DNA of 45,736 nt from Rhodocyclaceae bacterium (GTDB lineage: Bacteria; Pseudomonadota; Gammaproteobacteria; Burkholderiales; Rhodocyclaceae), in assembly GCA_020445785.1 (NCBI GenBank), contig JAGRFZ010000067.1:1-45736 (forward strand), written 5' to 3'. Each line of letters starts with the position of its first letter. Positions within the stretch are counted from its first letter, which is position 1. A program made the translations under genes and the position numbers. Positions 6,917 through 31,034 of the stretch are shown here, piece by piece. The notes under the pieces were generated by a model that worked only from the letters and a program-made list of their open reading frames with translations, was not told where the DNA came from and searched no databases.

Positions 6917-6932
6917 TGGCATAGCCCTTGCA
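6917..6932 (+). promoter_or_regulatory. Sigma-54 (-24/-12) promoter of pedF
   Basis: TGGCATAGCCCTTGCA has the invariant GG and GC pairs of sigma-54 promoters at the correct spacing (TGGCAY-N5-TTGCA). It ends about 60 bp before the pedF ATG, downstream of the inverted repeat at 6756-6772 and next to a divergent sigma-54 activator gene. Confidence 0.85.
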
Positions 6933-6993
6933 CTTGGGTTCCTGCACGCCAGCAACAGGGCGACGACCGACCAACCAACGCAAGGAACTATTC

Positions 6994-7428
6994 ATGGCCA
7001 CCACTCAGAAGCCCCGCCGCGCGCTGCGAAGCGCCATTGCCATTGCCGCCTTTGGATTCGCCGGTAGCGTATTCGCCCATGGCGACGTGACGCCGCAGGC
7101 AGTCGACGTGACCTCACTCAAGCCGGTGGGCGACGAATGGCTCGAGAGCAATCCCTACCGGGGCGACAAGGAAGCGATCCGGATCGGCTCCTCCGCCTAC
7201 AACCAGAACTGCGCGCGCTGCCACGGTATCGAGGCCGTGTCGGGCGGCATCGCACCGGATCTGCGCTACCTGCCGGTCGAGGACGAGGGCGACGAGATCT
7301 TCATCATGCGCATTCGCAACGGCGCAACCCGAAACGGGCGCGTGTACATGCCGCCGTTCGAGGGTATCCTCCAGCAAGAGGCAATGTGGGCCATTCGGGC
7401 CTATCTGGAGACGGTGCATGAAGAATAG
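6994..7428 (+). CDS. pedF: Cytochrome c550 PedF
   Basis: This 144-residue protein has a signal peptide ending SVFA near residue 28, one c-type haem site C73-ARC-H77 and a likely distal Met in RVYMPPFEG (M119). The segments HGDVTPQAVD, YNQNCARCHGIE, GGIAPDLR and MWAIRAYLETVHEE are characteristic of the PedF cytochrome c550 family, the electron acceptor of PQQ-dependent ethanol dehydrogenases. It would act in the periplasm, carrying electrons from the quinoprotein towards the terminal oxidase. The ATG at 6994 is preferred over an upstream start because it opens the signal peptide and has AAGGAA upstream. It overlaps the next gene by 11 bp and has a sigma-54 promoter, so it is probably induced by alcohols. 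Confidence 0.94.
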   Translation: MATTQKPRRALRSAIAIAAFGFAGSVFAHGDVTPQAVDVTSLKPVGDEWLESNPYRGDKEAIRIGSSAYNQNCARCHGIEAVSGGIAPDLRYLPVEDEGDEIFIMRIRNGATRNGRVYMPPFEGILQQEAMWAIRAYLETVHEE

Positions 7429-8266
7429 GCGCGGCATTCTGCGCAGCATGGTGGCGCTGGCGCTGGCAATTGCCAGCGCCAGCGTGGCCGCCCTCGCCGA
7501 GCCGGTGGAGACGATGACACCGGGCCGGCTGCGGATCGCGGTATACGACGACTTCGCCCCCTACTCGGGCGGCGGCTCGGGGATCGACGTCGCGATCGGC
7601 CGGGAACTCGCCACCCGCCTGGGGCTCGAGCCCGAGCTGGTGGAGTTCGCGGCCGACGAGGACATGAACGACGATCTGCGCAACATGGTCTGGAAGGGTC
7701 ACTACCTGGGCACCCGGCCAGCCGACGTAATGCTGCACGTGCCGGTGGATCAGCGGCTCGCCGCACGCAACGAGCAGGTACGGATCTTCGGTCCATACCA
7801 CCTCGAGAGCCTTGCCGTGATCCGCGATCCGAAGCGCGTACCGCCTGTCACGGGATCGGCCGCGCGGGCCCTCGAAGTCTTCACCCGCGAGCGGATCGGC
7901 GTCGAAACCGCGACCCTGGCCGACGACTTCCTGCTTCAGGTCCTGAACGGCCGGCTTCGGGACAACGTCGTGCATTTCAAGACCGTCGCCGCGGCGGTCA
8001 AGGCCATGGAAGCCGGCGACGTCGTCGCCGTGATGGCGACGCGCGCCGAGATCGAGGGCGCCAGCCGCGACGTCGATCCACGCTTCGAACTGAGCGCGGT
8101 GAGGATGCCGGAACTGCGGATTCAGGGCTGGCCCCTGGGGATGGCCGTGAAAGCGGACGCCACCGCCCTCGCCGACGCCCTGTCCAAGGTCATGGCCGAC
8201 ATCCAGCGCGACGGCACGCTGGCGCGCATATTCAGCGACCACGGAGTGACACTGCAGAAGCCCTGA
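7418..8266 (+). CDS. Periplasmic binding protein of quinoprotein clusters (MxaJ/XoxJ-like)
   Basis: The 282-residue protein has a signal peptide (about residues 1-28) and then a type II periplasmic binding fold: LRIAVYDDFAPYSGGGSGIDVAIGREL at the start, DVMLHVPVD in the middle, FGPYHLESLAVI at the hinge, and a C-terminal LADALSKVMADIQRDGTLARIFSDHG. Family 3 solute-binding proteins of this kind (MoxJ/MxaJ, XoxJ) occur beside quinoprotein dehydrogenases, where they are thought to help the apoenzyme mature rather than serve a transporter. Overlap with pedF shows co-translation. No permease gene is adjacent. A strong terminator follows about 60 bp downstream. The assignment as a quinoprotein accessory is by fold and context; the exact ligand is unknown. 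Confidence 0.85.
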   Translation: MKNRRGILRSMVALALAIASASVAALAEPVETMTPGRLRIAVYDDFAPYSGGGSGIDVAIGRELATRLGLEPELVEFAADEDMNDDLRNMVWKGHYLGTRPADVMLHVPVDQRLAARNEQVRIFGPYHLESLAVIRDPKRVPPVTGSAARALEVFTRERIGVETATLADDFLLQVLNGRLRDNVVHFKTVAAAVKAMEAGDVVAVMATRAEIEGASRDVDPRFELSAVRMPELRIQGWPLGMAVKADATALADALSKVMADIQRDGTLARIFSDHGVTLQKP

Positions 8267-8324
8267 GCAAGGGCTCAGCCCGGCGCGCACTGCCCCCCGC
8301 CGGGCCCGCGACAACCGAAGTACG

Positions 8325-8366
8325 AGCACTGCGCGCCGGCGGCAACGCCGGCGCGCAGTGCTTTTT
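8325..8366 (+). terminator. Rho-independent terminator after the pedF operon
   Basis: A perfect 16-bp stem (8325-8340 with 8347-8362) with a 6-nt loop GGCAAC is followed by a T-run (TTTTT, then C). It lies about 60 bp after the stop codon of the binding-protein gene. On the opposite strand no T-run follows, so it acts for plus-strand transcripts. Confidence 0.93.
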
Positions 8367-8405
8367 CTTGGCCACCTTGCAGGCCGGATGCCTTATATAA
8401 GACAT

Positions 8406-8419: not shown

Positions 8420-8420
8420 A

Positions 8421-8765: not shown

Positions 8766-9575
8766 CTAGGCGCCGCGGCCGGTCTTGCGCAGCATGCCGC
8801 GCTGGGGATCGTAGCCGATCACCGCAATCGCAAAGAACATCGACAGGCAGACGACGACGACCAGGAACGACGTGGCCTGGAACTGCCCGTACATCGCAAA
8901 GCGAACGAGCTCGACAGCATGGCTGAAAGGATTGAAGCGGGCTGCCTGGTGCAGCCACTCGGCGCCGGACTCCTGCAGTTTCCACAGGGGGTAGAGCGCG
9001 GGCGAGATGAAAAACATCGGGAAGATCACGAAGTTCATCGTGCCGGCGAAGTTCTCGAGCTGCTTCACATGCACCGACAAGACCAGGCCGAGGGCACCGA
9101 GCATCATGCCCGCCAGGACCAGTGCGGGCAGCACCAGCAGCATGCCCTCGAGCGGAAGCTCGACCCCGAGCAACCAGGCGATCACGAGGAAGGCGATCGC
9201 CTGCAGCACCGACAGCACGGTGCCGGCGACGAGCTTGGACAGCAACAGGTACCAGCGCGGCACCGGCGCGGTCAGGAGCAGCCGCATCATCCCCATTTCG
9301 CGGTCGTAGACCATGGCCAGCGACGACTGCATGCCGTTGAACAGCAGGATCATGCCGAGCAGCCCGGGGGCGATGTAGACCTGGTACGGGATGTAGGTCT
9401 CGTAGGGGGGGATGATGGACACGCCGAAGACATTCTGAAAGCCGGCGGCGAACACCACCAGCCACAGCAGCGGCCGCACCAGCGCCGAAAAGAAGCGCCC
9501 GCCCTGGTGCACGAACTTCTCGACCTCGCGACCGGCGACCGCGACCAGGACCCGCAGGCCATGCACCGGCGTCAT
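8766..9575 (-). CDS. pedC: ABC-2 type permease PedC of the PQQ alcohol system
   Basis: The 269-residue protein has about six membrane segments (for example FFSALVRPLLWLVVFAAGFQ, LQAIAFLVIAWLLGVELPL, FLVVVVCLSMFFAIAVIG) and the ABC-2 permease signature region FNPFSHAVELVRFAMYGQF. The sequence PPYETYIPYQVYIAPGLLGM is typical of the PedC permeases found with PQQ-dependent alcohol dehydrogenases. It is the last gene of the minus-strand operon, 22 bp after the binding-protein gene, and pairs with the ATPase at 11773-12549. In Pseudomonas putida the homologous PedA1A2BC system is reported to be needed for growth on 2-phenylethanol with lanthanides. Transport direction and substrate are not settled. 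Confidence 0.9.
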   Translation of the reverse strand: MTPVHGLRVLVAVAGREVEKFVHQGGRFFSALVRPLLWLVVFAAGFQNVFGVSIIPPYETYIPYQVYIAPGLLGMILLFNGMQSSLAMVYDREMGMMRLLLTAPVPRWYLLLSKLVAGTVLSVLQAIAFLVIAWLLGVELPLEGMLLVLPALVLAGMMLGALGLVLSVHVKQLENFAGTMNFVIFPMFFISPALYPLWKLQESGAEWLHQAARFNPFSHAVELVRFAMYGQFQATSFLVVVVCLSMFFAIAVIGYDPQRGMLRKTGRGA

Positions 9576-9597
9576 CGGCGACTCCTGGACGCTTCGA

Positions 9598-10776
9598 TCA
9601 GAACTTGCATTGGCTTTCCCGTTGGTCGAATCCGAGGGTATCGAGGGTATTGGTCTGGTGCATGAAGCCCTGGATCGGCGCCCGCTCGATCACCGCATTG
9701 TGGGTCGCCAGCAGCATCGGCTGGCGCAGTTGGTGGTTCCAACTGCGGAAGGACAGGCGATGGCCCTTGAAGCCATCGATCGTGATTTCCGGTCCGAGCA
9801 GATAGTCGCGGATCTTGCCGAAGTCCGCGCCACCGGTGCGCTGCATCGCCTCGACCACCGTCTTGGCGGCCATCCAGGCTGCCCAACCGGCCTCGCCCAT
9901 CCGGGCCTTGGCCTTGCGCTCGAAGCGGCTGTTCAACTGCGGCGCGCCGTTGCGCTCCCACGACCAGTGCCAGCCGGTTGCCACCAGCCCCTCGGCGCCG
10001 ACCACCGGCCGGGGCCGCACGGTGCGGTAGGGCACGCTTCGGGCGAATTCGCCGTCACTGTCGGCGACGAAGACCACATCATAGTCGGCGTTCGAGGTGA
10101 GCAGCCCGACATTGCCCTGGTCGCGTTCTCGGGGATCGTTCGACAGGATGAAGTCTCGCGTTGCCTCGATCTTGATGCCGAAACGCTTGGCCGATCGCTC
10201 GAAGGCCTTGGCGATCAGCGCGTCCTCGGCAAGCGGTCCCCGCAACAGCAGCACCGATCGCCATTTCTTCGAGACCAGGTACTGGGCCATCGCATCGGCC
10301 CGCATCGCGTGACTCGGCACGGTGTGCAGCAGATTGGCCTGACACAGCTCCTGGCGCAGGGCATCGTCGTGGGCCGAGATGTTGAACAGCAACAGGTCTC
10401 GCCCCTTGACCGCGGCGGCAACCTCGGCCACGACCGGCCCGGGCGCATCGATCAGAAAATAGCGCGTGCCTTCGCCGGACAAGCGCTCGAGCGCCTCGAC
10501 CAGGCCTTTGCCATCCTTCGCGCGCGCTTGCTTTTCGCCGAGCTCGACCCCCGCTGCCTTGGCGTTGAAGCGCGACTCGCGCAGCGCTACCGCCAGCCCG
10601 GGCTCCGGCTCGCCCTCCCCTTGCGCCAGGTTGCGTGCATAGATGCGGTCCTCATGGTAGCGATCGTCGCGCGACAGGCTGAGGTAGCCGAAATCGATCG
10701 ATGCCGCCAACGAATTGCCCGCCAGCCCGAAGCCGGCAAGGGCCAGCACGCCGGCGCCGACGACGGATTTCATGGT
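9598..10776 (-). CDS. ABC substrate-binding protein of the PQQ alcohol system (TIGR03863-like)
   Basis: A 392-residue exported protein with a signal peptide of about 23 residues starting MKSVVGAGVLALAGFGLAG. The core resembles a branched-chain amino acid-type (type I) binding protein: FLIDAPGPVVAEVAAAVKGR, LLLFNISAHDDALRQ, LHTVPSHAMRADAMAQYLV, WRSVLLLRGPLAED and DYDVVFVADSDGEFARSVPY. This family accompanies the PQQ-linked ABC system; it likely corresponds to one of the two PedA components of P. putida. The ATG at 10776 is preferred because it opens the signal peptide. A start at 10794 would overlap the upstream gene. It would act in the periplasm with PedB and PedC; the ligand is unknown, with a lanthanide or its carrier one proposal. 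Confidence 0.88.
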   Translation of the reverse strand, partial: TMKSVVGAGVLALAGFGLAGNSLAASIDFGYLSLSRDDRYHEDRIYARNLAQGEGEPEPGLAVALRESRFNAKAAGVELGEKQARAKDGKGLVEALERLSGEGTRYFLIDAPGPVVAEVAAAVKGRDLLLFNISAHDDALRQELCQANLLHTVPSHAMRADAMAQYLVSKKWRSVLLLRGPLAEDALIAKAFERSAKRFGIKIEATRDFILSNDPRERDQGNVGLLTSNADYDVVFVADSDGEFARSVPYRTVRPRPVVGAEGLVATGWHWSWERNGAPQLNSRFERKAKARMGEAGWAAWMAAKTVVEAMQRTGGADFGKIRDYLLGPEITIDGFKGHRLSFRSWNHQLRQPMLLATHNAVIERAPIQGFMHQTNTLDTLGFDQRESQCKF

Positions 10777-10786
10777 GCCGGCCGCC

Positions 10787-11761
10787 TCAGTCATCGACCA
10801 CCACACCATAGGGCACGCGACCGACCGGGACGGACTTCAACACCCGGCGCTTACCGGTATCGACGATCGACAAGTCGTCCGACAGTCCATTCACCACGTA
10901 GAGCGTCTTTTCGTCGCGGGACAAGGTGGCGCCCCACGCCCGGCGACCGACCAGGATGTAGTCCTCGATCTCGCGCTTTGCGACATCGACGACGGCAACG
11001 TGATTCGCCCGTCCGAGGGTGACGTAGGCGGTGGCGCCGTCGCGGGTCATGACGATGCCCACCGGTGTCACGTCCTCGTTGCGAAATCCCTTGGGCTTGA
11101 ACGGGATGGTGCCCTTGATCCGATCGGTCTTGCCGTCCAGGATCGTGACCTCGCCGGCCAGTTCGCTGGTGACCCAGACTTCGCTGCCGTCGGGCGTCAC
11201 CGCGAACCGGCGGGGGCGGTTGCCGACCGTGATGTTGCTGCGGATCTCGTTGGTGGCGGCGTCGATCACGTGCACCATGCTGGCAACCTCGGAGGTCGCG
11301 TAGACGGTCTTGCCGTCGGGACTCACCCTGACGCCCTCCGGTTCTTCGCCGACTTCGATTTCGGCCACCTGTTCGCCACTGGCGATGTCGATCACCGAAA
11401 TCGCCGCGTCCTCTTCCATCGAAATGTAGAAGCGCATGCCGTCAATACCCACGTCGAAGGCTTCCGGATCTTCACCGACATCGATGCTCTTGGTCACCGC
11501 GAGCGTGTCGACGTCGATCAGGTCGATCCGCCCGGAGTCGCTCGCCACCACGTACAGGGTCTTCCGGTCGGGCGAGAACTGCATGTGGCGCGGGCGCTCG
11601 CCGGTATCGATGACCTTGACCACTTCCAGGCTCTTGCCGTCGAGCACCGTGACCGCATGGTCCTTTTCGCTGCTGACGAAGACGCGACCGCTGTCCTTGG
11701 CCCCTGCGACACCACAGCATGCCAACGACAACACCAGGGCACCAGCCTTGACAAGGCTCAT
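10787..11761 (-). CDS. YVTN beta-propeller protein of the PQQ alcohol system
   Basis: After a signal peptide (residues 1-21, ending CCGVAGA), this 324-residue protein consists of seven or so beta-propeller repeats of about 42 residues. Each has the form of a strand such as VFVSSEKDHAVTVLDGKSLE, then a turn with G-x-x-P, then F-SPD-KTLYVV (for instance near residues 60-75 and 145-160). Such YVTN propellers are constant members of PQQ alcohol clusters (TIGR03866-like) and probably match PedA2. It may act as a periplasmic scaffold or binding protein. AGGAGG stands just before the ATG. It lies 11 bp after the ATPase gene and 10 bp before the binding-protein start, in the same operon. Confidence 0.9.
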   Translation of the reverse strand: MSLVKAGALVLSLACCGVAGAKDSGRVFVSSEKDHAVTVLDGKSLEVVKVIDTGERPRHMQFSPDRKTLYVVASDSGRIDLIDVDTLAVTKSIDVGEDPEAFDVGIDGMRFYISMEEDAAISVIDIASGEQVAEIEVGEEPEGVRVSPDGKTVYATSEVASMVHVIDAATNEIRSNITVGNRPRRFAVTPDGSEVWVTSELAGEVTILDGKTDRIKGTIPFKPKGFRNEDVTPVGIVMTRDGATAYVTLGRANHVAVVDVAKREIEDYILVGRRAWGATLSRDEKTLYVVNGLSDDLSIVDTGKRRVLKSVPVGRVPYGVVVDD

Positions 11762-11772
11762 TCCTGCCTCCT

Positions 11773-12549
11773 CTATCGATTGGGGTTCGAGTTTTCCGGC
11801 GGGCGTCGTCCGCCCCCTTCGGTGAGCTGGGCGAACGCCTGCCCGAGATTGTCGACGCCGGCGCCCGCCACCAGTTCAGCCGGTGTTCCTTCGGCCCGCA
11901 CTCGGCCCTGATGCAGCAACACGACCCGGTCGGCGCGCTCGGCCTCGTCCACCAGGTGCGACGCCCACAGCACGCCGACGCCGCGCGCCGCACACAAGCC
12001 ATGCACCTGATCCAGCAGGGTCGCGCGGGAACCCGGATCGAGTCCGACGGTGGCTTCGTCCATCAGCAGCACCCGTGGCTCATGCACCATGGCCCGCGCC
12101 AGCTCGACCTTGCGCCGGTTTCCGCCGGACAGATCACGCACACGATCGCGCCGCCGCTCCGCGAGTCCCTGGGCGTCGAGTTCCGCGGCGACGCGCCGCC
12201 GCGCATCGGCACCGCCGAGTCCGTGCAGCCGGGCATGAAACATCAGATTGCGCTCGACCGACAGATCGAGATCGAGGGTGGCCTGCTGAAAGACGATCCC
12301 GATCCGCGCCAAGGCCTTGACCGGTGCTCGGCGGATGTCGTGACCACAGATCGAGATGGCACCGCCATCGGCAACGAACAGGCCCGACAGCAATTGGAAC
12401 AAGGTGCTCTTGCCGGCGCCGTTGGGCCCCAGCAGGGCCACGAACTCGCCCTCGGAAATCGTCAGCGAGACGCGGTCGAGCGCCTTGCGGGCGCCATAGG
12501 ACTTGGCGACGTCGTCGACCGTCAGCAGAGCGGCATGGTTGTCAGTCAT
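11773..12549 (-). CDS. pedB: ABC transporter ATP-binding protein PedB
   Basis: The 258-residue ATPase shows Walker A GPNGAGKST, Q-loop GIVFQQATLDLDLSVERNL, ABC signature LSGGNRRKVELARAM, Walker B RVLLMDEATVGLD and the switch histidine in LWASHLVDEAE. The closest style is the ABC-2 exporter ATPases (NodI/CcmA-like), matching the ABC-2 permease PedC four genes along. Its start overlaps the stop of the NitT/TauT-type ATPase gene by one base (TGATG), so the two ABC systems are translated from one message. It energises the PedABC system at the inner membrane. The symbol follows the P. putida naming as I remember it (PedB for the ATPase). Confidence 0.88.
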   Translation of the reverse strand: MTDNHAALLTVDDVAKSYGARKALDRVSLTISEGEFVALLGPNGAGKSTLFQLLSGLFVADGGAISICGHDIRRAPVKALARIGIVFQQATLDLDLSVERNLMFHARLHGLGGADARRRVAAELDAQGLAERRRDRVRDLSGGNRRKVELARAMVHEPRVLLMDEATVGLDPGSRATLLDQVHGLCAARGVGVLWASHLVDEAERADRVVLLHQGRVRAEGTPAELVAGAGVDNLGQAFAQLTEGGGRRPPENSNPNR

Positions 12550-13307
12550 CAGGCAGCATCCTGGTTGTCACCGCCGAGTCCGGCCAGGAGGCCGGGGTGG
12601 CGTGACAACAGTTCTTCGTAGCGTCTTCCCACCTCGACCGACTGCGGATCGCGCGGGCGCGGCAGATCGATCCGATGCTCCAGCACGATCCGCCCCGGCG
12701 AGGCCGACAGGAAGCACACGCGGTCGGCCAACGCGAGTGCTTCACGCAGATCGTGGGTAACGAACAATACCGTCGCGCGGCGCCGCTGCCAAAGCGTGAT
12801 CAGCATTTCACGCAGACGAGCCGCCGTCGGCGCGTCGAGCGACACGAACGGTTCGTCCATCAGCAGCAAACGCGGCTCGATGACGAAGGCGCGGGCAAGC
12901 GCGACCCGGCGCTGCATGCCACCCGACAATGCCCCCGGGAACGCATCGACGACTTCGCCCAGCTCCATCGCCCGCAACAGTTCCAAGGCCCGTTGCTCCG
13001 CGCCCGGCCGCCCATCGCACACCAGGCAGACATTCTGCCGCACCGTCAGCCACGGCATCAGGCGCGGCTCCTGGAACATGAAGCCGACATCTTCCGCCGC
13101 AGCACCGGCGTCGAGATCGACACTGGCCTGGGCGGTCGCGTCGAGGCCGCCGATGATGTTGAGCAGGGTGCTCTTGCCACAGCCCGAGGGCCCCACCAGG
13201 CACACGAACTCGCCATCCTCCGCGGACAGCCGCAGGTCGCGCAGCGCCAAGTGGCGGCGCCCACCACGATCGGCGTAGTGCTTCTCCCGCACGTGGACCG
13301 TCAGCAT
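12549..13307 (-). CDS. NitT/TauT-type ABC transporter ATP-binding protein
   Basis: The 252-residue protein has Walker A GPSGCGKST, Q-loop VGFMFQEPRLMPWLTV (the FQEPRLMPW form typical of nitrate/sulfonate/taurine importers), signature LSGGMQRRVALARA, Walker B LLLMDEPFVSLD and switch FVTHDLREAL. With the two upstream genes it forms a complete SsuABC-like importer: binding protein, permease, ATPase. Only one base separates its start from the permease stop, and it overlaps pedB. The importer's substrate cannot be read from the sequence. Its place in a PQQ alcohol operon suggests something needed for that pathway, such as a metal chelate, a cofactor or an organic substrate. Confidence 0.9.
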   Translation of the reverse strand: MLTVHVREKHYADRGGRRHLALRDLRLSAEDGEFVCLVGPSGCGKSTLLNIIGGLDATAQASVDLDAGAAAEDVGFMFQEPRLMPWLTVRQNVCLVCDGRPGAEQRALELLRAMELGEVVDAFPGALSGGMQRRVALARAFVIEPRLLLMDEPFVSLDAPTAARLREMLITLWQRRRATVLFVTHDLREALALADRVCFLSASPGRIVLEHRIDLPRPRDPQSVEVGRRYEELLSRHPGLLAGLGGDNQDAA

Positions 13308-13308
13308 G

Positions 13309-14130
13309 TCACTGCCTCCAGCGGTTCAGGCGCCGCTCCATCGGGCGCATGACCAGTGCCTCGACCAGCAGCACCACGGCCGCGAACACCAGCGTGTAGG
13401 CCAGGATGCCGGAGATGTCGAAGAACTGGAAAAAAACGTTGAGCTGGAAGCCGATGCCCTCGCTGCGCCCCAGCAGCTCGACCACCAGCACGATCTTCCA
13501 GATCAGCGAGAGTCCGGCCCGCGCCGCCGCAAAAAGGTAGGGATAGAGCTGCGGCAGATACACCTGCAGGAACTTGCGGGACACCGGCAGACGATAGGCC
13601 CGGGCGACTTCCATCAGGCGCGGATCGATCGCACGGGCCCCCTCGCGCACGGTCACCACCACGGTAGGAATCTTGTTGAGCGCCACGGCCAGGATCGCCG
13701 CCCAGTCGTTGAGGCCGAACCAGATGTAGCACAGGATGATGGTGACCAGTGCCGGGATGTTCAGTCCGAGCACCAGCCAACCATCGAGGAAGCGGTCGAG
13801 CATCGGCCATCGCCCCATGGCGATGCCGACGGCCGCACCGATCAACATCGCCGCGGCAAAACTCACGCTCACCCGCAGCAGGGTGACGCCGAGATGGTGC
13901 GGCAAGGCCATCGACGCGATCTCCGCGCCGATACGCTCGAACACCACGGCCGGCATCGGTACCGTGGCATCCTGTGCCACCACTGCCACCACCTGCCACA
14001 GCAACAGGAACACCACCAGCGACGCCAATCGCAACAGGGCGTCCCGCCCCGGTCGCCATGGTGGGCGGCCCTTGCCCGGAGAACCCAGCGCGCCTGCAGT
14101 CGTGGTCGATGCTTCGGCCGGTCGATTCAC
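13309..14130 (-). CDS. NitT/TauT-type ABC transporter permease
   Basis: This 273-residue protein has a cytoplasmic N-terminal tail of about 30 residues, then six membrane segments including LLRLASLVVFLLLWQVVAVV and LGLNIPALVTIILCYIWFGL. The cytoplasmic EAA loop is EVARAYRLPVSRKFLQVYLP, which contacts the ATPase. It belongs to the BPD-type permease superfamily (SsuC/TauC). The start codon is GTG and overlaps the binding protein's stop (GTGA), indicating translational coupling. It partners the ATPase at 12549-13307. No motif reveals the substrate. Confidence 0.9.
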   Translation of the reverse strand: MNRPAEASTTTAGALGSPGKGRPPWRPGRDALLRLASLVVFLLLWQVVAVVAQDATVPMPAVVFERIGAEIASMALPHHLGVTLLRVSVSFAAAMLIGAAVGIAMGRWPMLDRFLDGWLVLGLNIPALVTIILCYIWFGLNDWAAILAVALNKIPTVVVTVREGARAIDPRLMEVARAYRLPVSRKFLQVYLPQLYPYLFAAARAGLSLIWKIVLVVELLGRSEGIGFQLNVFFQFFDISGILAYTLVFAAVVLLVEALVMRPMERRLNRWRQ

Positions 14131-17164: not shown

Positions 17165-19009
<1,845 letters not shown>

Positions 19010-20637: not shown

Positions 20638-20649
20638 CGGGGACTCCGT

Positions 20650-22167: not shown

Positions 22168-22182
22168 CTCGCGCCTCCTGAA

Positions 22183-24162
<1,980 letters not shown>

Positions 24163-24188
24163 CGCAAACGCTCGGAGCACGGCCTCGC

Positions 24189-25097
24189 CTACTGCGCCGC
24201 GACGTCCAGCCGATGGACCTGCGTACCCCGCCAACAGTCCTCGGCGACCTGCCCGCTGCGCCGGAATTCGGCTTCGCCGGCCTTCGCAACCTCGTCGTTC
24301 CACAGCACGAAATTGACGACGAAGGCGCGGTCGAGGTAGGCGCGGCCGAGGTAGAAACCCGGCCGAACCATGCGGATCTCGTCGCGAATGGCAAAGCCGT
24401 CGCGCCCCGCCATCACGTCCGGCATGCGCCGATAGCCCGGCAACTCGTCGGTAAAGGCATAGTCGATGATGATCGACTCGCGACGACCGTCGAGCAGGCT
24501 CTGGCCGCAATACAGGCGGGCCGGGAACAGCAGCCACTGGTCGCGGCCGCCGACCTCGATCTTGGTCAAGGGATTGGCCGTACCGCCATCCTCGACGAGA
24601 CCCACGCGCTTGAGCGGGCGCAGATCCTCGATACGGTTTCGCAGCAGACGCTGGTCGCGGTAGAAGACCTTGCCCTTCCACAGGATCTCGCCGATCGCGT
24701 CGAGCTTGCGGCCGGCGACATTGACCAGCAGGCCCCGGAGCCCGCCCCCGGCGATCTCGGACAGCCGCAATTTTCCGCTGATGCCGCGCGGAAAGAAGAG
24801 GTCGCCTTCATACGGCCCGTCCGGGATCGGCCCGGCCGACAATCGTGCGTAGATCTGGTCCACCTGTTCCTGCTCGAGCAGCGACAACAGTTCCGGCGTG
24901 ATGCGGTAGAGATCGTCCACCGACAGCGGATGGTCGTGCTCGATCGCGGCAAAGTCCGGCTTGGCGGAATGGGCCTCGCCGTACGGCGCGAACGGAAAGT
25001 CGACCTCGAATTCCTTCTTCTTGCGCTGTTCTTCCTGGCCGCAGCCGGCGACCAGCGTGCAGGCGACGAGGGCGATCGCGAATCGATTGACTGGCAT
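24189..25097 (-). CDS. Lipoprotein of the di-haem cytochrome operon
   Basis: The 302-residue protein starts with a lipoprotein signal: MPVNRFAIALVACTLVAGCG, where LVAGC is the lipobox and Cys19 would be acylated. A charged linker (QEEQRKKKEFEVDFP) follows, then a globular domain with no haem site. Recognisable stretches are ARLSAGPIPDGPYEGDLFFP, LWKGKVFYRD and a late block with IRDEIRMVRPGFYLGRAYLD. I do not know the family. Position between four cytochrome genes suggests an anchor or assembly factor at the outer or inner membrane. The PDG-YEG and FLG-AY pattern is reminiscent of small lipocalin-like barrels, but that is only an impression. Confidence 0.8.
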   Translation of the reverse strand: MPVNRFAIALVACTLVAGCGQEEQRKKKEFEVDFPFAPYGEAHSAKPDFAAIEHDHPLSVDDLYRITPELLSLLEQEQVDQIYARLSAGPIPDGPYEGDLFFPRGISGKLRLSEIAGGGLRGLLVNVAGRKLDAIGEILWKGKVFYRDQRLLRNRIEDLRPLKRVGLVEDGGTANPLTKIEVGGRDQWLLFPARLYCGQSLLDGRRESIIIDYAFTDELPGYRRMPDVMAGRDGFAIRDEIRMVRPGFYLGRAYLDRAFVVNFVLWNDEVAKAGEAEFRRSGQVAEDCWRGTQVHRLDVAAQ

Positions 25098-25111
25098 GGC
25101 GTCTCTCCGCT

Positions 25112-27691
25112 TCACAGGGTTGCCAGGAAGGCCGTCAGCGCCTTCTTGTCGGCATCGGGCAGGTCCTCGCCGAAGCGATGCCCGGCGTTCTCGACCTCGG
25201 CGAAGCAACTGCTATAGACCTGCTTGACCAGATAGGGCCGCTTCTTGAGGGCTTCGACCAGGCCGTTCGGCGACTTGCGAACCTCCTTGACGATCGCCTT
25301 CAGGTCGGCGAGCACCTTCTTGCCTTCGCGCGGACCCAGCCGCTGCTCGAGCCGCGCTTCGACTTCGTCGGACTTGAACTTGGCCTGCACCAGATCGACG
25401 ACGAAGGCCTTGTGGCGGAAGTTGCCGATGGTTCCCGCGGTGACGCCGCGACCGTCGATCTCTGCCGGGATGGTGAGCGCAAAGCCGAGCAGTTTTTCCT
25501 TGTCGGTGCCGTCCCACAGCCTCGGGCCGACCCGCAACGTAACGTCCTCGTTGAGCAAGGTCACCTTCGGGACGCGCAGGTCCGGATTCAACAGGGCGTC
25601 CATCGAGCGCTTGTAGAGGTCGAACCGGCCTGCCACGCTGGGGTCGTAGGGCATGCACGCAGGCTGTTGCTCGGGGGGCAGCAGGCGGATGTTGCTGCCA
25701 TCCACGTAGCGCGGGCGCATCGCATAGAAGTCGTTGGCGGAATTGGCCGGCTTGCCGCAAATCTCCGGTCCGATCGCGTTGTTGTGCATGAACGGGGCGT
25801 GGGCCCACAGATTCAGCAGCGAGATGTTGCGGTAGTAGCCGCGCCCGCCGTCGGCCGGTTCGGCGATGTTCGGGTCGGGCGCCTGGGCGCGCAGGGTCTC
25901 CGAACCGTATTGTTCCCAGATATGGCCTGCCACGTGGTTCGAGTGCAAGGCCCGGCAGCGGAATGTGCCGACTTCCGAGACCGGGGTCGGCCGGTCGTTG
26001 CCGAGCCAGTCGGCACGCAGGCCGCTGGCCTCGTCGATGCGATGGAAGTCGATGCCGGTGGTCTGGCCGGCCGTCGCCTCGGGCTGACTGGAATGGCAGC
26101 GCGCGCACTGAGCCGCGAAGACCTTGGCGCCGCGGGCGACCGCACCGTCACCGAACTCACTTTCGAGGTCTTCGATGAAATCGGTCTCGGTGTACTCGGC
26201 GCGCGGATCGAAGGACTTCAGATCGTTCTCGCGGGCAACCCGCAGGTCGCTGGCGTGGGCCTCGGCCGACAGGAAGAAGTCGAGGATGTTCTGCAACCGA
26301 TCCTCGATCGCCCGGAAGTTCGGGCAATCGCGCCGGCACTGGCCGATGTCGAACGGCGTCTGGCCGAAGCCGCGTTGCTGCGGGTCCACCACCCGCAGGT
26401 CGGTCAGGTGATTGACCCAACACTGCTCGGAACACGAACCGATGTTGAAATACACGCGCTGGATCGCTTCGAGGGCGCCGATCGAATCCTCCCCCCCTTT
26501 CAGGATGTGGTGCACGGTCTCGTCCTGCAGCCCCTTCGACCAGCACTTGCCGTCACGGCCCGGCTCGCACCAGCAGGCCTCGGCGCTCTGACCGTCGCAG
26601 CTCTGCGCCTTGCGCCACTTTCGTACCGACTCGCCCGCGAACACCGGTCGCCGGGCGATGTTGATCAGTGCGTTGATGGTGCCAGGGTTGTTCACCTGGT
26701 CGTTGGGAATCGCCGAGGTATCCGAGGTGCCCGGCCGCGCATGGGCGAACATCTGCCATTCCAGGGTATTGCTGGGCATGCCCGAAACCATGACCTCGGA
26801 GATCCGGGTGTACTGGTTGCCGATCAGGCCGACGATGTTTTCCCAGCGCGGTCGTGCCGGATCATCGGGCGGATTCTCCGGGTCGAAGGCGATGTGGCAG
26901 GAGCCGCAGGACGTGCCGATCAGGAACGGCGGTTCGATCGAGCCGTCCCACAGACGGCTCTTGGCCGGTTCGTGCTCGCCGCCAGCGGCGGCAATCCGCC
27001 GGCCGTAGCCTTCCCAGCTCCCGCTACGACCATTCACTTCGATCCAACGCGCACGGTCGAAGCGCGGATTCGGGAACTTGCGGATGCCGAGCGCACCGGT
27101 CGAGGTACCGAACTTGAGATCACAGGCGGACTGACGCTGGTCCTGCGGGCCATGGGGGTCGCCCTCGACCAACGGCGCGTCGCGGAAATCGCAGGCCGGG
27201 TCACGATAGCCCTTGCGGCCGACGTAGGACAGCAGTTCCTCGTCGCCGGGACACCAGTCGAGGCCATAGGTCTCATCCAGGCTCCGCGCGGGGCAACCGA
27301 GCGAGCCCGGCGTACAGCAACTCGGATCGTTGATCGCCCCCCAGGCCGCGAACCGGTCGCCGCGCTGATCGGAGCGCAGTACCCGGAACCAATCGATCAT
27401 GACGCCGACCCGCTGCTGGAAAACGTAGGTATGAAAACGATCGTTGCCGGCGGTGGCTTTGAACCAGATCAGACGGCCGGCACATTCGGACGCATTCAAC
27501 CCCTCGCGTGCACACGCCTCGACATAGGGGATGTCCTGCGCATGGACGACCGCCTGGCCGGCGATATGCACCGGCCCCTCATCGCGTCGCCAGCCCGGCG
27601 CCGTCTCGGACTGCTGCGCGAAGACCGATGTGAACATCGAGGCCGCCATCACGACCGCCACGACATGGACCAATTGCAGAGCGCCTTTCAT
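25112..27691 (-). CDS. Very large Cys-rich di-haem cytochrome c, first gene of operon
   Basis: The 859-residue exported protein (signal peptide about 1-25) carries two haem sites, C262-GSC-H266 in LIGTSCGSCHIAFDPE and C529-ARC-H533 in FAAQCARCHSSQ. It has many further cysteines (for example DPSCCTPGSLGCPA, ACWCEPGRDGKCW, IGSCSEQCWVNH) that likely form disulfides in the periplasm. A late block LLNLWAHAPFMHNNAIGPEICG parallels the LHNGSVPTL block of the smaller cytochromes, so the C-terminal half probably shares their fold. I do not recognise the family by name. GGAGGT precedes the ATG. It heads the five-gene operon, whose cytochromes together carry eight haems. Confidence 0.82.
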   Translation of the reverse strand: MKGALQLVHVVAVVMAASMFTSVFAQQSETAPGWRRDEGPVHIAGQAVVHAQDIPYVEACAREGLNASECAGRLIWFKATAGNDRFHTYVFQQRVGVMIDWFRVLRSDQRGDRFAAWGAINDPSCCTPGSLGCPARSLDETYGLDWCPGDEELLSYVGRKGYRDPACDFRDAPLVEGDPHGPQDQRQSACDLKFGTSTGALGIRKFPNPRFDRARWIEVNGRSGSWEGYGRRIAAAGGEHEPAKSRLWDGSIEPPFLIGTSCGSCHIAFDPENPPDDPARPRWENIVGLIGNQYTRISEVMVSGMPSNTLEWQMFAHARPGTSDTSAIPNDQVNNPGTINALINIARRPVFAGESVRKWRKAQSCDGQSAEACWCEPGRDGKCWSKGLQDETVHHILKGGEDSIGALEAIQRVYFNIGSCSEQCWVNHLTDLRVVDPQQRGFGQTPFDIGQCRRDCPNFRAIEDRLQNILDFFLSAEAHASDLRVARENDLKSFDPRAEYTETDFIEDLESEFGDGAVARGAKVFAAQCARCHSSQPEATAGQTTGIDFHRIDEASGLRADWLGNDRPTPVSEVGTFRCRALHSNHVAGHIWEQYGSETLRAQAPDPNIAEPADGGRGYYRNISLLNLWAHAPFMHNNAIGPEICGKPANSANDFYAMRPRYVDGSNIRLLPPEQQPACMPYDPSVAGRFDLYKRSMDALLNPDLRVPKVTLLNEDVTLRVGPRLWDGTDKEKLLGFALTIPAEIDGRGVTAGTIGNFRHKAFVVDLVQAKFKSDEVEARLEQRLGPREGKKVLADLKAIVKEVRKSPNGLVEALKKRPYLVKQVYSSCFAEVENAGHRFGEDLPDADKKALTAFLATL

Positions 27692-28065: not shown

Positions 28066-28449
28066 TCACTCGCCGAGCGAAAGGATCCAGCTCACCAGCA
28101 GGCGGGCATCGGTCTCCTTGATCGCCGAAGCGTTGGGCGGCATCGACAGGCCGCTGACCTTTCCCTTCCAGTGACTGCTGTAGGGGCTGGATCCCTCCAG
28201 CACCACCCGGGTCAAGAAATCCTGGGCGCCGGGCTTGCCCCGGTACTGGGCCGCCACGTCCTGCCAGGCCGGGCCGATCGGGTCCATGCCTTTCGGACCG
28301 GGCTTGCCCGACTCGATCGAATGGCAGGTCATGCAGCCGCTGGCGGTCGCCAACTGGCGCATGGATTCGTCGCCCTTGCTGTCGGCGGCCGCCGCACCGG
28401 CGAGCGCCATGCCGACGGCCGCGAGCATGGTTGTCATTGCAAACTTCAT
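28066..28449 (-). CDS. Small class I cytochrome c (c551/c552-like)
   Basis: The 127-residue protein has a signal peptide of about 22 residues (ending GAAAA), one haem site C39-MTC-H43 in ATASGCMTCHSIE, PIGPAWQDVAAQYRG in the middle, and the distal Met in VSGLSMPPN (M103), the cytochrome c551/c5 pattern. It would carry electrons in the periplasm, probably from the adjacent dehydrogenase or the di-haem proteins. AGGAGG precedes the ATG; the longer open frame upstream is not used. The gene lies downstream of the dehydrogenase on the same strand but has its own sigma-54 promoter and is bounded by terminators on both sides. Confidence 0.92.
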   Translation of the reverse strand: MKFAMTTMLAAVGMALAGAAAADSKGDESMRQLATASGCMTCHSIESGKPGPKGMDPIGPAWQDVAAQYRGKPGAQDFLTRVVLEGSSPYSSHWKGKVSGLSMPPNASAIKETDARLLVSWILSLGE

Positions 28450-28682: not shown

Positions 28683-28698
28683 TGCAACACTCATGCCA
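28683..28698 (-). promoter_or_regulatory. Sigma-54 promoter of the small cytochrome c gene
   Basis: On the minus strand the site reads TGGCATGAGTGTTGCA, a perfect -24/-12 element about 234 bp upstream of the cytochrome ATG. It lies downstream of the dehydrogenase terminator. The rest of the 407-bp gap 28450-28856 shows no gene. Confidence 0.8.
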
Positions 28699-28856: not shown

Positions 28857-30644
28857 TCAGGACTTGTGCAGCTTGAATACCCAGATCGAGCCACCCTGCT
28901 CGAGGTAATTCACGCGCTTGGCGACGTCACCGCCCCACAGTGGCACCGCACCACCCCAGCCGGCCGACACGGCAACATACTGCTCACCGTCCTGTTCCCA
29001 GGTGATCGGCGGCGCAACGATGCCGGTGCCGACCTGGAAGCTCCACAGCTCCTTGCCGGACTTGGCATCGAGGGCCTTGAAGTAGCCTTCCGGGGTACCG
29101 TAGAAGGTCAGCCCGCCGGCAGTCGTCAGCACACCGCCCCACAGCGGCGCGTAGTTCTTGTTTTCCCAGACGATCTTGCCGGCCACCGGGTCAACCGCAC
29201 GCAGCACGCCGATGTAGTCTTCATGCAGCGCCTTGATGGTGAAGCCCGCACCGAGGTAGGCCGCGCCCTTCTTGTAGGACACCGGCTCGTTCCAGATCTC
29301 CATGCCCCACTCGTTGGCCGGCACATAGAACAGACCGGTCTTCGGGTTGTAGGCGATTTGCATCTGGTTCTTGCCGCCGAGGAAGGACGGCACCGCAAAC
29401 ACCATCTCGCCCTTCTTGCCGTCGGCCGAATTGGCCGGGTTGCCCGGGCGGTTCGCGTCCACATACACCGGCCGGCCGGTCGAGAGGTCGATCTTTTCGG
29501 CCCAGCTGATCTCGTTGACGAACGGGAAGGCGTTCAGCAGCTTGCCGTTGGTACGGTCGTTCACATAGAAGAAACCGTTGCGGTCGGCCTTGCCGCCCGC
29601 CTTGACGACCTTGCCCGACTTCGGATCCTTGTAATCGAACGAGACGAACTCATTGACGCCGTCGAAATCCCAGCCGTCGTTCGGCGTGTTCTGGTAGTGC
29701 CAGACGATCTTGCCGGTGTCCGGATTGATCGCCACGGTCGACGACGAGAAGAGGTTGTCGCCCGGCCGCAGGTGGCTGTTCCACGGTGCCGGGTTGCCGG
29801 TTCCGGCGAAGATCAGGTTGGTGTCCGGATCGTAGGTGGCACCGTTCCAGGTGGCGGCGCCGCCCGTCTGCCAGAGGTCGCCGGGCCAAGTGGCGTTCTT
29901 GGTGCCGGAGACGCCGTTCTCGGTCTTGTTGCCCGCATCGTCGAACTTGTAGCCCATGTGGCCTTCGATCGTCGGGCGGATCCACTTCAGCTTGCCGGTC
30001 TTCGCGTCGCGCGCTTCGATGCGGCCGATGACGCCGAATTCGCCGCCGGAGACGCCGGTGATGACCATGCCGTTCACGATGATCGGCGCCGCCGACATCG
30101 AATAGCCGGCCGCATAGTCGTCCACCTTCTCGCGCCAGACCCGCTTGCCGGTTTCGACGTTGAACGCCAGCAACTGGGCATCGAGGGTGCCGAAGATCAC
30201 CAGGTTGTCGTACAGCGCGGCGCCGCGGTTCACCACGTCACAGCACGGCATGATGCCGTCCGGCAGGCGATGCTCGTATTTCCAGAGCTTCTTGCCGGTC
30301 TTCGCGTCGAAGGCGAACAGACGGCTGTAGGAGGCAGTCACGAACAGACGGCCATCGTGCACCAGCGGCTGAGCCTCCTGGCCACGCTGCTTCTCGCCGC
30401 CGTAGGACATCGTCCAGGCCGGCACGAGGTTGCCGACGTTGCCGGCATTGACCTTGTCGAGCGGGCTGTAGCGCTGGCCTTGGGTACCCAGGCCGAAGGA
30501 GACGACATCGCCCGTCGTCTTGGCGTCGTTCAGGATATCCGCGTCGGTCACGCCGGCGGAGGCCGTGCCCCACGCCAGAATCGAGGCTGCGACGACGCCC
30601 ATCGCCAGGCTGCGGGCCGGGCCAGTCTTGCTCCAGTCTTTCAT
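28857..30644 (-). CDS. PQQ-dependent alcohol dehydrogenase with lanthanide-type metal site (PedH-like)
   Basis: This 595-residue quinoprotein oxidises alcohols to aldehydes in the periplasm. A signal peptide (about 1-30, ending GTASA) precedes an eight-bladed propeller with repeated GK-LW motifs. The vicinal disulfide that covers PQQ is C134-C135 in [12 protein letters not shown]. Expected metal ligands are E202 (SGGEFGVIG), N284 (GTGNPAPWN) and the catalytic D326 ([12 protein letters not shown]). D328, two residues after the catalytic Asp, is the extra acidic ligand found in lanthanide-dependent XoxF and PedH but replaced by Ala or Ser in calcium enzymes. The ATG at 30644 follows AGGAGGT. 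It has its own sigma-54 promoter and terminator and is divergent from the tonB operon. The ethanol/methanol family is certain; the substrate is not. Confidence 0.95.
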
Positions 30645-30721
30645 CAAAATACCTCCTCACTATTTTTTGGTGCGTCCCCGACCGCCCGTGACCGGATCTG
30701 AGCGGGGTGCCAAAGGAGTTG

Positions 30722-30737
30722 TGCAAGGGACATGCCA
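30722..30737 (-). promoter_or_regulatory. Sigma-54 promoter of the alcohol dehydrogenase
   Basis: On the minus strand the site is TGGCATGTCCCTTGCA, a perfect -24/-12 element ending about 78 bp before the ATG. It faces away from the sigma-54 promoter of the tonB operon at 31019-31034. The 458-bp divergent region 30645-31102 holds no gene. Confidence 0.9.
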
Positions 30738-30925
30738 CTTGGCGGGCAGCGGAATCCTGCGATCCATCCTCCTGAAAATCTCCAGACCGGAGTCGCCGAA
30801 ATCTGGCGGAATCGCGCGCAGGCCGGCCCATGCAGGGTCACCGGTGCCGGCAGGCCGAATGCGCCCGCCGAGGCCCGGGCGCACACCCGCGCCGCTGCCG
30901 GGCGGGTGTTCCGAAAGTTGCCAGT

Positions 30926-30942
30926 TGTTCCGAATTGAAACA
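30926..30942. promoter_or_regulatory. Candidate shared activator site between divergent sigma-54 promoters
   Basis: TGTTCC-gaatt-GAAACA is an inverted repeat with one arm mismatch and the same 6-5-6 layout as the site at 6756-6772. It lies about 190 bp from the dehydrogenase promoter and 80 bp from the tonB promoter, suitable for one activator driving both. Another TGTTCC half-site stands at 30907-30912. Confidence 0.55.
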
Positions 30943-31018
30943 GGCTGCTGGCTGAAGCGGGACGGAGCACCATCCCGCCCCAGGATTTTTCGTCCTGCCT
31001 CGACAAACCCCCTTTTTC

Positions 31019-31034
31019 TGGCATCTTGCTTGCA
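31019..31034 (+). promoter_or_regulatory. Sigma-54 promoter of the tonB-receptor-sensor operon
   Basis: TGGCATCTTGCTTGCA is a perfect -24/-12 element ending about 70 bp before the tonB ATG at 31103. Confidence 0.88.

What the first reader, a model, noticed from the sequence alone, without database searches (positions are those of the whole stretch)
6917..31034. Five near-identical sigma-54 promoters tie the alcohol-oxidation genes into one regulon
The 16-mers at 6917-6932 (+), 15188-15203 (-), 28683-28698 (-), 30722-30737 (-) and 31019-31034 (+) all read TGGCAY-N5-TTGCA and each precedes a gene of the same theme: pedF, the importer-ped operon, a cytochrome c, the PQQ dehydrogenase and the tonB-receptor-sensor operon. 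Under uniform base composition about 0.04 such sites would be expected in the window. Two AcoR-type activators are encoded in the same stretch. A lanthanide-type alcohol system including its outer-membrane receptor and two-component sensor placed under sigma-54 is, to my knowledge, not a described arrangement.
Basis: partly seen in the sequence, partly recalled or inferred. Interest (0 to 1): 0.82.

Follow-up and report, generated by a model that had tools for sequence, protein, structure and literature searches.

The report
Sigma-54 switch for lanthanide-type alcohol oxidation
In these bacteria a set of genes for oxidising alcohols, with an enzyme of the rare-earth-metal type, appears to be switched on together by the special RNA polymerase factor sigma-54, through matching promoter and activator sites that are kept in many related species.

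Summary
In detail: five exact TGGCAY-N5-TTGCA sites at the stated places, all intergenic, all pointing at a gene (chance 0.04). Comparison with relatives supports them as promoters. A sigma-54 site precedes the PQQ dehydrogenase in 77 of 80 related loci (reversed control 0 of 80). A second, divergent site is present in 46 of 78 (control 1 of 78). I also found an activator palindrome, TGYTCC-N5-GGARCA, between the divergent promoters. It recurs in the acoR1/pedF intergenic region in 14 of 14 further genomes with that layout, of 16 examined, and its exact form occurs once in this genome, here. acoR1 has its own sigma-54 site. Best reading: an AcoR/BmoR-like activator drives a sigma-54 regulon for a PedH-type (lanthanide-type) alcohol dehydrogenase, pedF and a TonB/two-component operon in Rhodocyclales, and for the dehydrogenase and pedF also in Burkholderiales. 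Limits: the importer-ped and cytochrome promoters were checked only within the genus and lack a convincing palindrome; no transcript data; inducer and binding protein unproven. Sigma-54 control of a PQQ alcohol dehydrogenase is already stated for Azospirillum, so this is a new variant, not a new kind.

The parts
6917..6932 (+). sigma-54 site (-24/-12) of pedF
   Evidence: Exact match. In 28 pedF loci elsewhere: 15 score >=19.5 of 20.5 (one of them, L098, far upstream and doubtful), 9 read TGGTATN5TTGC, 4 have pedF directly behind the dehydrogenase gene and no site; reversed control 0 of 28. In 14 of 14 further genomes with the acoR1/pedF layout (no reversed control run there).
   Evidence: One mismatch to TGGCAYN5TTGCW; counterpart >=19.0 in 13 of 14 genomes with the acoR1/pedF layout, >=19.5 in 9 of 14, absent in L201; >=19.5 in 14 of 28 in another set.
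6756..6772 (.). activator palindrome (UAS) TGTTCCACATTGGAGCA, 161 bp before the pedF element (start to start) and between the acoR1 promoter and the acoR1 start codon
   Evidence: Top-scoring place in the window for a matrix learned only at dehydrogenase promoters; only exact TGYTCCN5GGARCA in the genome.
4643..6676 (-). acoR1: sigma-54 activator, GAF + AAA+ (GAFTGA) + Fis-type HTH, 677 aa
   Evidence: Pfam, GAFTGA; relative of 47-67% identity in 16 of 16 dehydrogenase-bearing genomes tested.
6994..7428 (+). pedF, cytochrome c-550
   Evidence: TIGR04494 above cut-off.
7418..8266 (+). periplasmic binding protein (SBP_bac_3) next to pedF
   Evidence: Pfam; beside pedF in many of the loci compared.
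15188..15203 (-). sigma-54 site of the importer-ped genes
   Evidence: Exact; perfect site in 3 of 3 same-genus genomes in which this gene was found; only weak palindromes upstream.
12549..15110 (-). ABC importer of the sulfonate/nitrate type (binding protein, permease, ATPase)
   Evidence: ATPase and permease by Pfam; the binding protein has no Pfam match and only a weak, below-cut-off SsuA-family match.
8766..12549 (-). ped ABC genes: ATPase, beta-propeller protein, substrate-binding protein, permease PedC
   Evidence: TIGR03864, TIGR03866, TIGR03863, TIGR03861 above cut-off.
17137..17152 (+). possible weak sigma-54 site before acoR2 (CGGCAT-N5-ATGCA); only 12 bases before my assigned ATG
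   Evidence: 18.5 here; GG and GC core kept in 4 of 4 relatives listed, 17.5-18.5 of 20.5; spacing to the ATG is too short for a normal leader.
16999..17015 (.). weaker UAS before acoR2
   Evidence: 15.1 bits here, 20.6 in the nearest relative, 10.2, 12.2 and 17.5 in three others.
17165..19009 (+). acoR2: second sigma-54 activator of the same type, 614 aa
   Evidence: Pfam, GAFTGA; 299 of 603 aligned residues identical to acoR1; similar C-terminal helix.
28683..28698 (-). sigma-54 site before the cytochrome c gene and the cytochrome genes behind it; about 220 bases of leader to the ATG
   Evidence: Exact; before the cytochrome in G005 and G001. In G004 a site lies at the same place behind the dehydrogenase but about 2 kb before the cytochrome match. 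No palindrome.
28066..28449 (-). cytochrome c gene
   Evidence: Pfam Cytochrom_C.
19165..27691 (-). cytochrome-rich genes behind it (large cytochrome-like protein, lipoprotein, unknown protein, two RoxA-like di-heme proteins); possible operon
   Evidence: Gene order, PF21419 and NF040606, synteny in the genus.
28857..30644 (-). PQQ-dependent alcohol dehydrogenase, PedH/ExaF type with lanthanide-type Asp
   Evidence: TIGR03075; best PDB hits 6zcv/6zcw, WDFDGVNE in both, WDFSGNNE in 1flg.
30722..30737 (-). sigma-54 site of the dehydrogenase
   Evidence: Exact; 77 of 80 related loci, reversed control 0 of 80; 10 of 11 in a partly overlapping set, own genome included, L033 lacking it.
30926..30942 (.). 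activator palindrome TGTTCCGAATTGAAACA between the divergent dehydrogenase and tonB promoters (205 and 93 bp from their elements)
   Evidence: 23.6 bits (this region was one of the 77 used to learn the matrix).
31019..31034 (+). sigma-54 site of the tonB-receptor-sensor genes
   Evidence: Exact; divergent site in 46 of 78 loci, 42 of 47 in L071-L117; reversed control 1 of 78.
31103..38455 (+). tonB, TonB-dependent receptor, histidine kinase, LuxR-type response regulator, NosR-like protein
   Evidence: Pfam, NCBIfam; parts of the block kept in relatives.

Best explanation
This is a sigma-54 regulon for periplasmic alcohol oxidation. RNA polymerase with sigma-54 waits at -24/-12 promoters in front of the PedH-type PQQ dehydrogenase, the divergent tonB-receptor-kinase-regulator genes, pedF and the activator gene acoR1 itself. 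An AcoR/BmoR-like enhancer-binding protein, most likely AcoR1 (possibly shared with its paralogue AcoR2), senses an alcohol or its oxidation product through its GAF-type N-terminal part. It binds the palindrome TGYTCC-N5-GGARCA, which lies 93-205 bp upstream of three of these elements and about 32 bp downstream of the acoR1 element, and opens the promoters with its GAFTGA loop. The importer-ped and cytochrome genes use the same sigma factor, but whether the same activator serves them is open. The kinase/LuxR-type regulator inside the regulon probably adds a second input, metal or redox, as PedS2/R2 does in Pseudomonas. Shown here: promoter and palindrome conservation, gene content, activator motifs, rpoN. 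Inferred: which activator binds, the inducer, the looping, the role of the two-component pair.
For: Five sites against 0.04 by chance, clustered in this contig genome-wide. Promoter conservation by an ad hoc score (maximum 20.5, threshold 19.5): dehydrogenase 77 of 80 vs 0 of 80 reversed; divergent site 46 of 78 vs 1 of 78; pedF 15 of 28 strict plus 9 TGGTAT vs 0 of 28, and 14 of 14 further genomes with the layout. Palindrome: learned at dehydrogenase promoters (best hit >=8 bits in 74 of 77 regions; 2 of 77 after one shuffle), then tested where it was not learned: 14 of 28 pedF upstream regions >=15 bits against 0.05 expected from single-base shuffles, and 14 of 14 acoR1/pedF regions >=16. 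Exact form once in 4.58 Mb, at 6756. acoR1 relative in 16 of 16 dehydrogenase-bearing genomes tested. GAFTGA in both activators; rpoN present.
Against: No transcript or binding data. The count of 74 of 77 is on the training set; the three misses are L114, L123 and L140. The importer-ped promoter has only weak palindromes and the cytochrome promoter none. The genome gives 27 matches to AcoR1, most over the AAA+ part only, but including a 56% identical full-length paralogue on another contig, so the binder is not settled. Two of 16 genomes (L205 Thauera propionica, L214 Simplicispira) lack the acoR1/pedF layout; at L205 the palindrome is also missing (3.6 bits), as it is at that Thauera's dehydrogenase (L114). 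Half of the 28 pedF regions miss 15 bits; L115, L139 and L166 have a sigma-54 site but 8.8 bits or less. In 9 of 28 pedF loci the -24 box is TGGTA. No reversed control was run. The close relative dehydrogenase L033 lacks a good site. The 80 loci were the best by protein identity and are related to each other. In Azospirillum the stated partner is LuxR-type, so the local response regulator could be the real activator.
Confidence: 0.75

Rival explanations
1. The sites are sigma-54 promoters, but the direct partner is the local LuxR-type response regulator with its kinase, as stated for exaA in Azospirillum; the AcoR proteins control other genes.
For: [quoted passage not shown] A kinase or regulator match lies upstream on the opposite strand in 35 of the 42 loci of L071-L117 that have the divergent site; the other 7 have under 3 kb of upstream sequence.
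Against: LuxR-type proteins lack the AAA+ domain that sigma-54 needs (general knowledge). The palindrome is also kept at acoR1/pedF, which in the further genomes is a separate place from the dehydrogenase locus. The dehydrogenase upstream regions of two Azospirillum plasmid loci do not show TGGCAYN5TTGC.
Confidence: 0.15
2. Two or more activators share the sigma-54 promoters: AcoR1 for dehydrogenase, tonB genes and pedF; AcoR2 or another protein for the importer-ped and cytochrome genes. One sigma factor, but not one regulon. (This does not exclude the main reading.)
For: No convincing palindrome at the importer and cytochrome promoters; acoR2 lies between those two operons and is kept there in the genus.
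Against: The C-terminal helices of AcoR1 and AcoR2 are similar, so they may read the same palindrome. A weak pair of palindromes 19 bp apart is kept 286-317 bp upstream of the importer element here and in two relatives (5.8-11.6 bits).
Confidence: 0.4
3. The motif matches are chance or serve another DNA-binding protein, and the genes are read from sigma-70 promoters.
For: 11 of 19 other genome matches lie inside called ORFs, so the motif alone is not proof.
Against: Conservation against reversed controls.
Confidence: 0.04

Closest known systems
exaA of Azospirillum brasilense Sp7 (Singh et al. 2017, J Bacteriol 199:e00035-17; paper not held; known from a passage and reference in PMC6115532)
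   Same: PQQ-dependent alcohol dehydrogenase transcribed with sigma-54.
   Different: There the named partner is a LuxR-type regulator. In the two Azospirillum plasmid loci I read (other species), no TGGCAYN5TTGC site or palindrome precedes the gene. Here an AcoR-type gene and a palindrome are kept with the system.
BmoR / Pbmo of Thauera butanivorans (passages of PMC8899819; listings)
   Same: Alcohol-responsive sigma-54 activator with its site 193 bp upstream of -24/-12. The listing of PMC13227213 mentions 669 residues for the engineered factor, close to AcoR1's 677. That Thauera is in the same order is recalled.
   Different: BmoR drives an alkane monooxygenase promoter; here the targets are a lanthanide-type dehydrogenase, pedF and TonB/sensor genes. 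BmoR's sequence was not compared.
ped cluster of Pseudomonas putida (passages of PMC12997753, and PMC13390443)
   Same: Same enzyme type (PedE/PedH), PedF (recalled), ped ABC transporter, two-component sensor PedS2/R2.
   Different: The passages name PedR1/AgmR and PedS2/R2; the one sigma-54 mention in the review is CbrB. The review says P. putida lacks a LutH homologue; here a TonB receptor gene is in the regulon.
AdhR and other sigma-54 activators of Clostridiales (passages of PMC6615313, and PMC7017808)
   Same: Sigma-54 activators (AdhR with GAF domain) of alcohol dehydrogenase genes; many palindromes of the TGT-N10-12-ACA kind, mostly 100-250 bp upstream.
   Different: Alcohol-forming enzymes of Gram-positive bacteria, not periplasmic PQQ enzymes.

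Membership tests
sigma-54 (-24/-12) promoter | TGGCAY-N5-TTGCW with GG and GC ten bases apart | tested here: met
   Exact at five sites; conserved against reversed controls.
sigma-54 (-24/-12) promoter | transcript start about 12 bp downstream and dependence on RpoN | not testable with these tools
   rpoN is in the genome; no expression data.
bacterial enhancer-binding protein, AcoR/BmoR type | AAA+ domain with GAFTGA, Fis-type HTH, GAF domain | tested here: met
   Pfam for acoR1 and acoR2; GAFTGA.
bacterial enhancer-binding protein, AcoR/BmoR type | palindromic activator site upstream of the target promoters | tested here: met
   For dehydrogenase, tonB, pedF. Weak for importer-ped, not found for cytochrome.
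bacterial enhancer-binding protein, AcoR/BmoR type | AcoR1 itself binds that site and responds to an alcohol | not testable with these tools
   Only gene neighbourhood and co-occurrence.
lanthanide-type PQQ alcohol dehydrogenase (PedH/ExaF) | extra Asp two residues after the catalytic Asp | tested here: met
   WDFDGVNE as in 6zcv; WDFSGNNE in 1flg. That this Asp marks lanthanide use, and that 6zcv is PedH and 1flg a calcium enzyme, is recalled.
lanthanide-type PQQ alcohol dehydrogenase (PedH/ExaF) | activity with lanthanides | not testable with these tools
   No assay.
PQQ receptor PqqU/YncD | match to the curated PqqU model above its cut-off | tested here: not met
   94.8 bits against a cut-off of 1200; PDB hits YncD/PqqU cover residues 437-633 of 799 only.

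The most novel reading that the evidence does not exclude
A conserved sigma-54 circuit in Betaproteobacteria in which one palindrome sits between two divergent sigma-54 promoters and another sits inside the leader of the activator's own sigma-54 transcript (acoR1). The activator would then control its own sigma-54 promoter from a downstream, transcribed enhancer while driving a lanthanide-type alcohol oxidation regulon that includes an outer-membrane receptor and a two-component sensor.
Probability: 0.35. Interest if true: 0.68.

Novelty: new variant of a known kind. Interest (0 to 1): 0.57.

Why it matters
From recall and the passages read, control of rare-earth-type alcohol dehydrogenases has been worked out mainly in Pseudomonas and Methylobacterium, through LuxR-type and two-component regulators. 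Here a different logic, sigma-54 with a defined activator palindrome, is kept in loci labelled Zoogloea, Dechloromonas, Azonexus, Denitromonas and (site but not always palindrome) Thauera, with the dehydrogenase and pedF parts in Cupriavidus and Ralstonia. It gives a named activator candidate, named binding sites and a set of target genes to test, and it places a TonB receptor of unknown cargo in the same control group, which helps the search for how PQQ or lanthanides enter such cells.

Tried and rejected
I used the pattern search of the own genome and read 16 stretches around the hits.

Idea that all five promoters share the palindrome: not borne out for the cytochrome promoter, weak for importer-ped. 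Idea that the window matches 28438-28453 and 40524-40539 are promoters: dropped, the first overlaps the cytochrome start and the second lies inside an ORF. Idea that acoR2 is under a clear sigma-54 promoter: kept only as possible, because the element ends 12 bases before the ATG.

Idea that sigma-54 control extends to all close PQQ dehydrogenases: tested on 9 of the 136 plasmid records found. Both betaproteobacterial ones have a site >=19.5; none of the 7 alphaproteobacterial ones does.

Idea of an RNA element: Rfam finds nothing in the window at gathering scores. One search aligned acoR2 in a wrong frame and used some wrong start codons; one search replaces those parts. The predicted transcript start of acoR1 is, whose acoR1 values were right.

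Literature: ten searches listed no paper that I could see to be about sigma-54 control of a lanthanide-type dehydrogenase together with a TonB receptor. Only listings, and passages of six papers, were seen. The library lacks most subscription papers, so this is not proof of absence.

Full report
What is there. The window is contig C189 (45,736 bases) of a 4.58 Mb draft genome in 231 contigs. The five 16-mers are exactly as described. With my start codons they stand before pedF, the binding protein that heads the importer-ped genes, a cytochrome c gene, the PQQ dehydrogenase, and tonB. All are intergenic. A sixth site with one mismatch, 6819-6804 (-), stands before acoR1.

Is it more than chance? 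In the window, 5 found against 0.04 expected. In the genome, 24 matches to TGGCAYN5TTGCW, 5 to the reversed pattern, 5 of the 24 in this 1.0% of the assembly; by my arithmetic a Poisson chance of about 5 in a million. The other 19 sites were read in context: 11 inside an ORF called by my script, 8 not. NCBIfam was run on ten of the neighbouring genes. Above cut-off: NtrC (its site lies inside the preceding ORF), benzoate dioxygenase, a TRAP permease, a PQQ dehydrogenase, formylmethanofuran dehydrogenase A and a CinA-like amidase. Flagellin is just below its best model's cut-off. Another sigma-54 activator (37% identical to AcoR1) and two multihaem-like proteins make up the rest. So the genome uses this promoter type, and there is also ordinary background.

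Conservation of the dehydrogenase promoter. They are 70-94% identical. Within 500 bp upstream, 77 of 80 have a site scoring at least 19.5 of 20.5 by an ad hoc score; the three others score 17.0, 17.5 and 19.0 (L125, L126, L149). The same stretches read backwards give 0 of 80. Two loci (L122, L145) had less than 500 bp upstream but were counted. Over the whole 80 loci, including these sites, the density is 0.034 per 500 bp and strand. In a partly overlapping set of 11 dehydrogenase loci, own genome included, 10 have it and L033 does not. The loci are related to each other, so these are not independent events.

Conservation of the divergent promoter. On the opposite strand, within 1000 bp upstream, 46 of 78 loci (two dropped for short flanks) carry a site of at least 19.5, against 1 of 78 reversed; 42 of the 47 loci L071-L117 have it, and 4 of the other 31. 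Of those 42, 35 have a kinase or regulator match upstream on that strand and 26 a receptor match. The 7 without a kinase or regulator have under 3 kb of upstream sequence. Zoogloea loci mostly lack a receptor match. In three loci examined, genes on that side include a SoxYZ-like quinoprotein-associated carrier (L086) or a quinoprotein-relay metallohydrolase (L080, L109), so the first gene differs between genera.

pedF and acoR1. In 28 other pedF loci, 15 score at least 19.5 (one, L098, far upstream and doubtful), 9 read TGGTATN5TTGC, and 4 have pedF directly behind the dehydrogenase without a site of its own; reversed 0 of 28. In 16 further genomes chosen from the dehydrogenase loci, all have an acoR1 relative of 47-67% identity; in 14 of 16 it is divergent from pedF. 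In those 14, a pedF-side site of at least 19.5 is present in 14 and an acoR1-side site of at least 19.0 in 13 (9 at 19.5 or more; L201 lacks one) (no reversed control there). Of the two others, L205 has an acoR1-side site but no palindrome, and L214 has a 16.5-bit palindrome.

Importer-ped and cytochrome. The importer site is perfect in 3 of 3 same-genus genomes in which the gene was found. The cytochrome site is found in G005 and G001 (2 of 11 cytochrome matches; the other 9 are 50-57% identical and perhaps not orthologues). In G004 a site lies at the same place behind the dehydrogenase, but about 2 kb before the cytochrome match, with other sequence between.

The activator palindrome. From up to 350 bp upstream of the -24 box in 76 relatives plus the window, a palindrome TGYTCC-N5-GGARCA emerges; the best hit is at least 8 bits in 74 of 77 regions, often near 20, against 2 of 77 after one shuffle. 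This is a training count. Tests outside the training regions: 14 of 28 pedF upstream regions reach 15 bits against 0.05 expected from 20 single-base shuffles each, and all 14 acoR1/pedF regions reach 16. Of the 14 pedF regions below 15 bits, 4 are those with pedF behind the dehydrogenase; L115, L139 and L166 have a sigma-54 site but 8.8 bits or less. In the window the top places are 6756 (25.5 bits, pedF/acoR1), 30926 (23.6, dehydrogenase/tonB; in the training set), 8465 (21.6, see noticed items) and 16999 (15.1, before acoR2). In the genome the exact palindrome occurs once, at 6756; with one mismatch 19 places against 9 for the reversed pattern, 3 of the 19 in this contig. The importer promoter has 8.3 bits at 286 bp with a second weak copy 19 bp further, a pair also seen in two relatives (8.3/8.4 and 11.6/10.1), and the third relative has 14.2 bits at 102 bp; the cytochrome promoter has nothing. 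Of 200 shuffled 500 bp stretches, 95% stay below 6.5 and 99% below 12.2. So the importer link is weak, not absent.

Proteins. The dehydrogenase's best solved relatives are 6zcv/6zcw, listed as quinoprotein ethanol dehydrogenase (that these are PedH is recalled), and it shares WDFDGVNE with them where 1flg has WDFSGNNE. AcoR1 and AcoR2 have GAF, AAA+ with GAFTGA, and a Fis-type HTH; 299 of 603 aligned residues are identical. rpoN is in the genome, and a pqqC match with one in-frame TGA. The TonB receptor's solved relatives with E below 1e-10 are YncD/PqqU, over residues 437-633, and it is far below the PqqU model's cut-off, so its cargo is open.

How it most likely works. AcoR1, on sensing an alcohol or product, binds the palindromes and opens the sigma-54 promoters of the dehydrogenase, the tonB-receptor-sensor genes and pedF. 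At acoR1 itself the palindrome falls about 20-36 bp after the predicted transcript start, an order of elements kept in 13 of 14 relatives; whether this activates or brakes acoR1 is unknown. AcoR2, with a similar reading helix, may share the sites or extend the set to the importer and cytochrome genes. The kinase and LuxR-type regulator may add a second input.

Range. Among plasmid-borne relatives, 9 of 136 records were read: Aquabacterium and Variovorax have the site, and the seven alphaproteobacterial ones, including two Azospirillum, do not. The arrangement as defined here thus looks betaproteobacterial, on a small sample. A second dehydrogenase of the same genome, XoxF-like by my reading (WDFDG), also has a perfect sigma-54 site. 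In a search of 150 family genomes, 12 had a close homologue, and 6 of the 12, own genome included, have a site upstream. No palindrome is near it in the own genome.

Compared with what is known. Sigma-54 with a PQQ alcohol dehydrogenase is stated for Azospirillum (PMC6115532, passage). Sigma-54 activators tied to alcohols are known in Thauera butanivorans (BmoR, PMC8899819, passages) and Clostridium (PMC6615313 and PMC7017808, passages). The Pseudomonas ped passages I read name other regulators (PMC12997753, PMC13390443). Ten searches listed nothing that I recognised as this combination. I therefore call it a new variant of a known kind.

Noticed in passing
window 8423-8439 and 8465-8481: Activator palindromes without a target, in the 500 bp between the convergent ends of the binding-protein gene next to pedF and pedC; no good sigma-54 site is kept beside them. 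The 8465 copy is kept in two same-genus genomes (19.4 and 24.1 bits).
   Followed up: partly
L055 (G000:C43), site at contig 17774-17759, - strand: A XoxF-like dehydrogenase gene (WDFDG) has a perfect sigma-54 site upstream, kept in 6 of 12 family genomes with a close homologue, own included. Possible sigma-54 control of methanol oxidation.
   Followed up: partly
L055 (G000:C43), site at contig 9554-9539, - strand: Another perfect site upstream of an ORF whose match to formylmethanofuran dehydrogenase subunit A begins only at residue 373, so the link of site and gene is loose.
   Followed up: no
window 19165-27691: Cytochrome-rich gene block with two RoxA-like di-heme proteins, a lipoprotein and two large proteins with few or no family matches, kept in the genus; function unclear.
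   Followed up: no
L178 (G000:C85:524-540): Another strong activator palindrome (21.4 bits) near the start of a short contig, with a weaker one 19 bp away; target gene not identified.
   Followed up: no
L188 (G000:C52:14477-16498): A further AcoR-type activator, 56% identical to AcoR1, next to a gene that by eye looks like 4-hydroxyphenylpyruvate dioxygenase (no family search); it could compete for the palindrome.
   Followed up: no
L119 (CAMDGF010000006.1): Record titled Klebsiella pneumoniae MAG holds a dehydrogenase 72% identical to this one with acoR and pedF matches beside it; the label is probably wrong.
   Followed up: no
window 36344-38455: NosR-like membrane protein at the end of the receptor-sensor block, below the NosR model cut-off (533 of 1000 bits), with matches near the block in several relatives.
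   Followed up: no
L244 (G000:C44:9924-10613): The pqqC match has one in-frame TGA inside the matched stretch; could be an assembly error or a broken gene.
   Followed up: no
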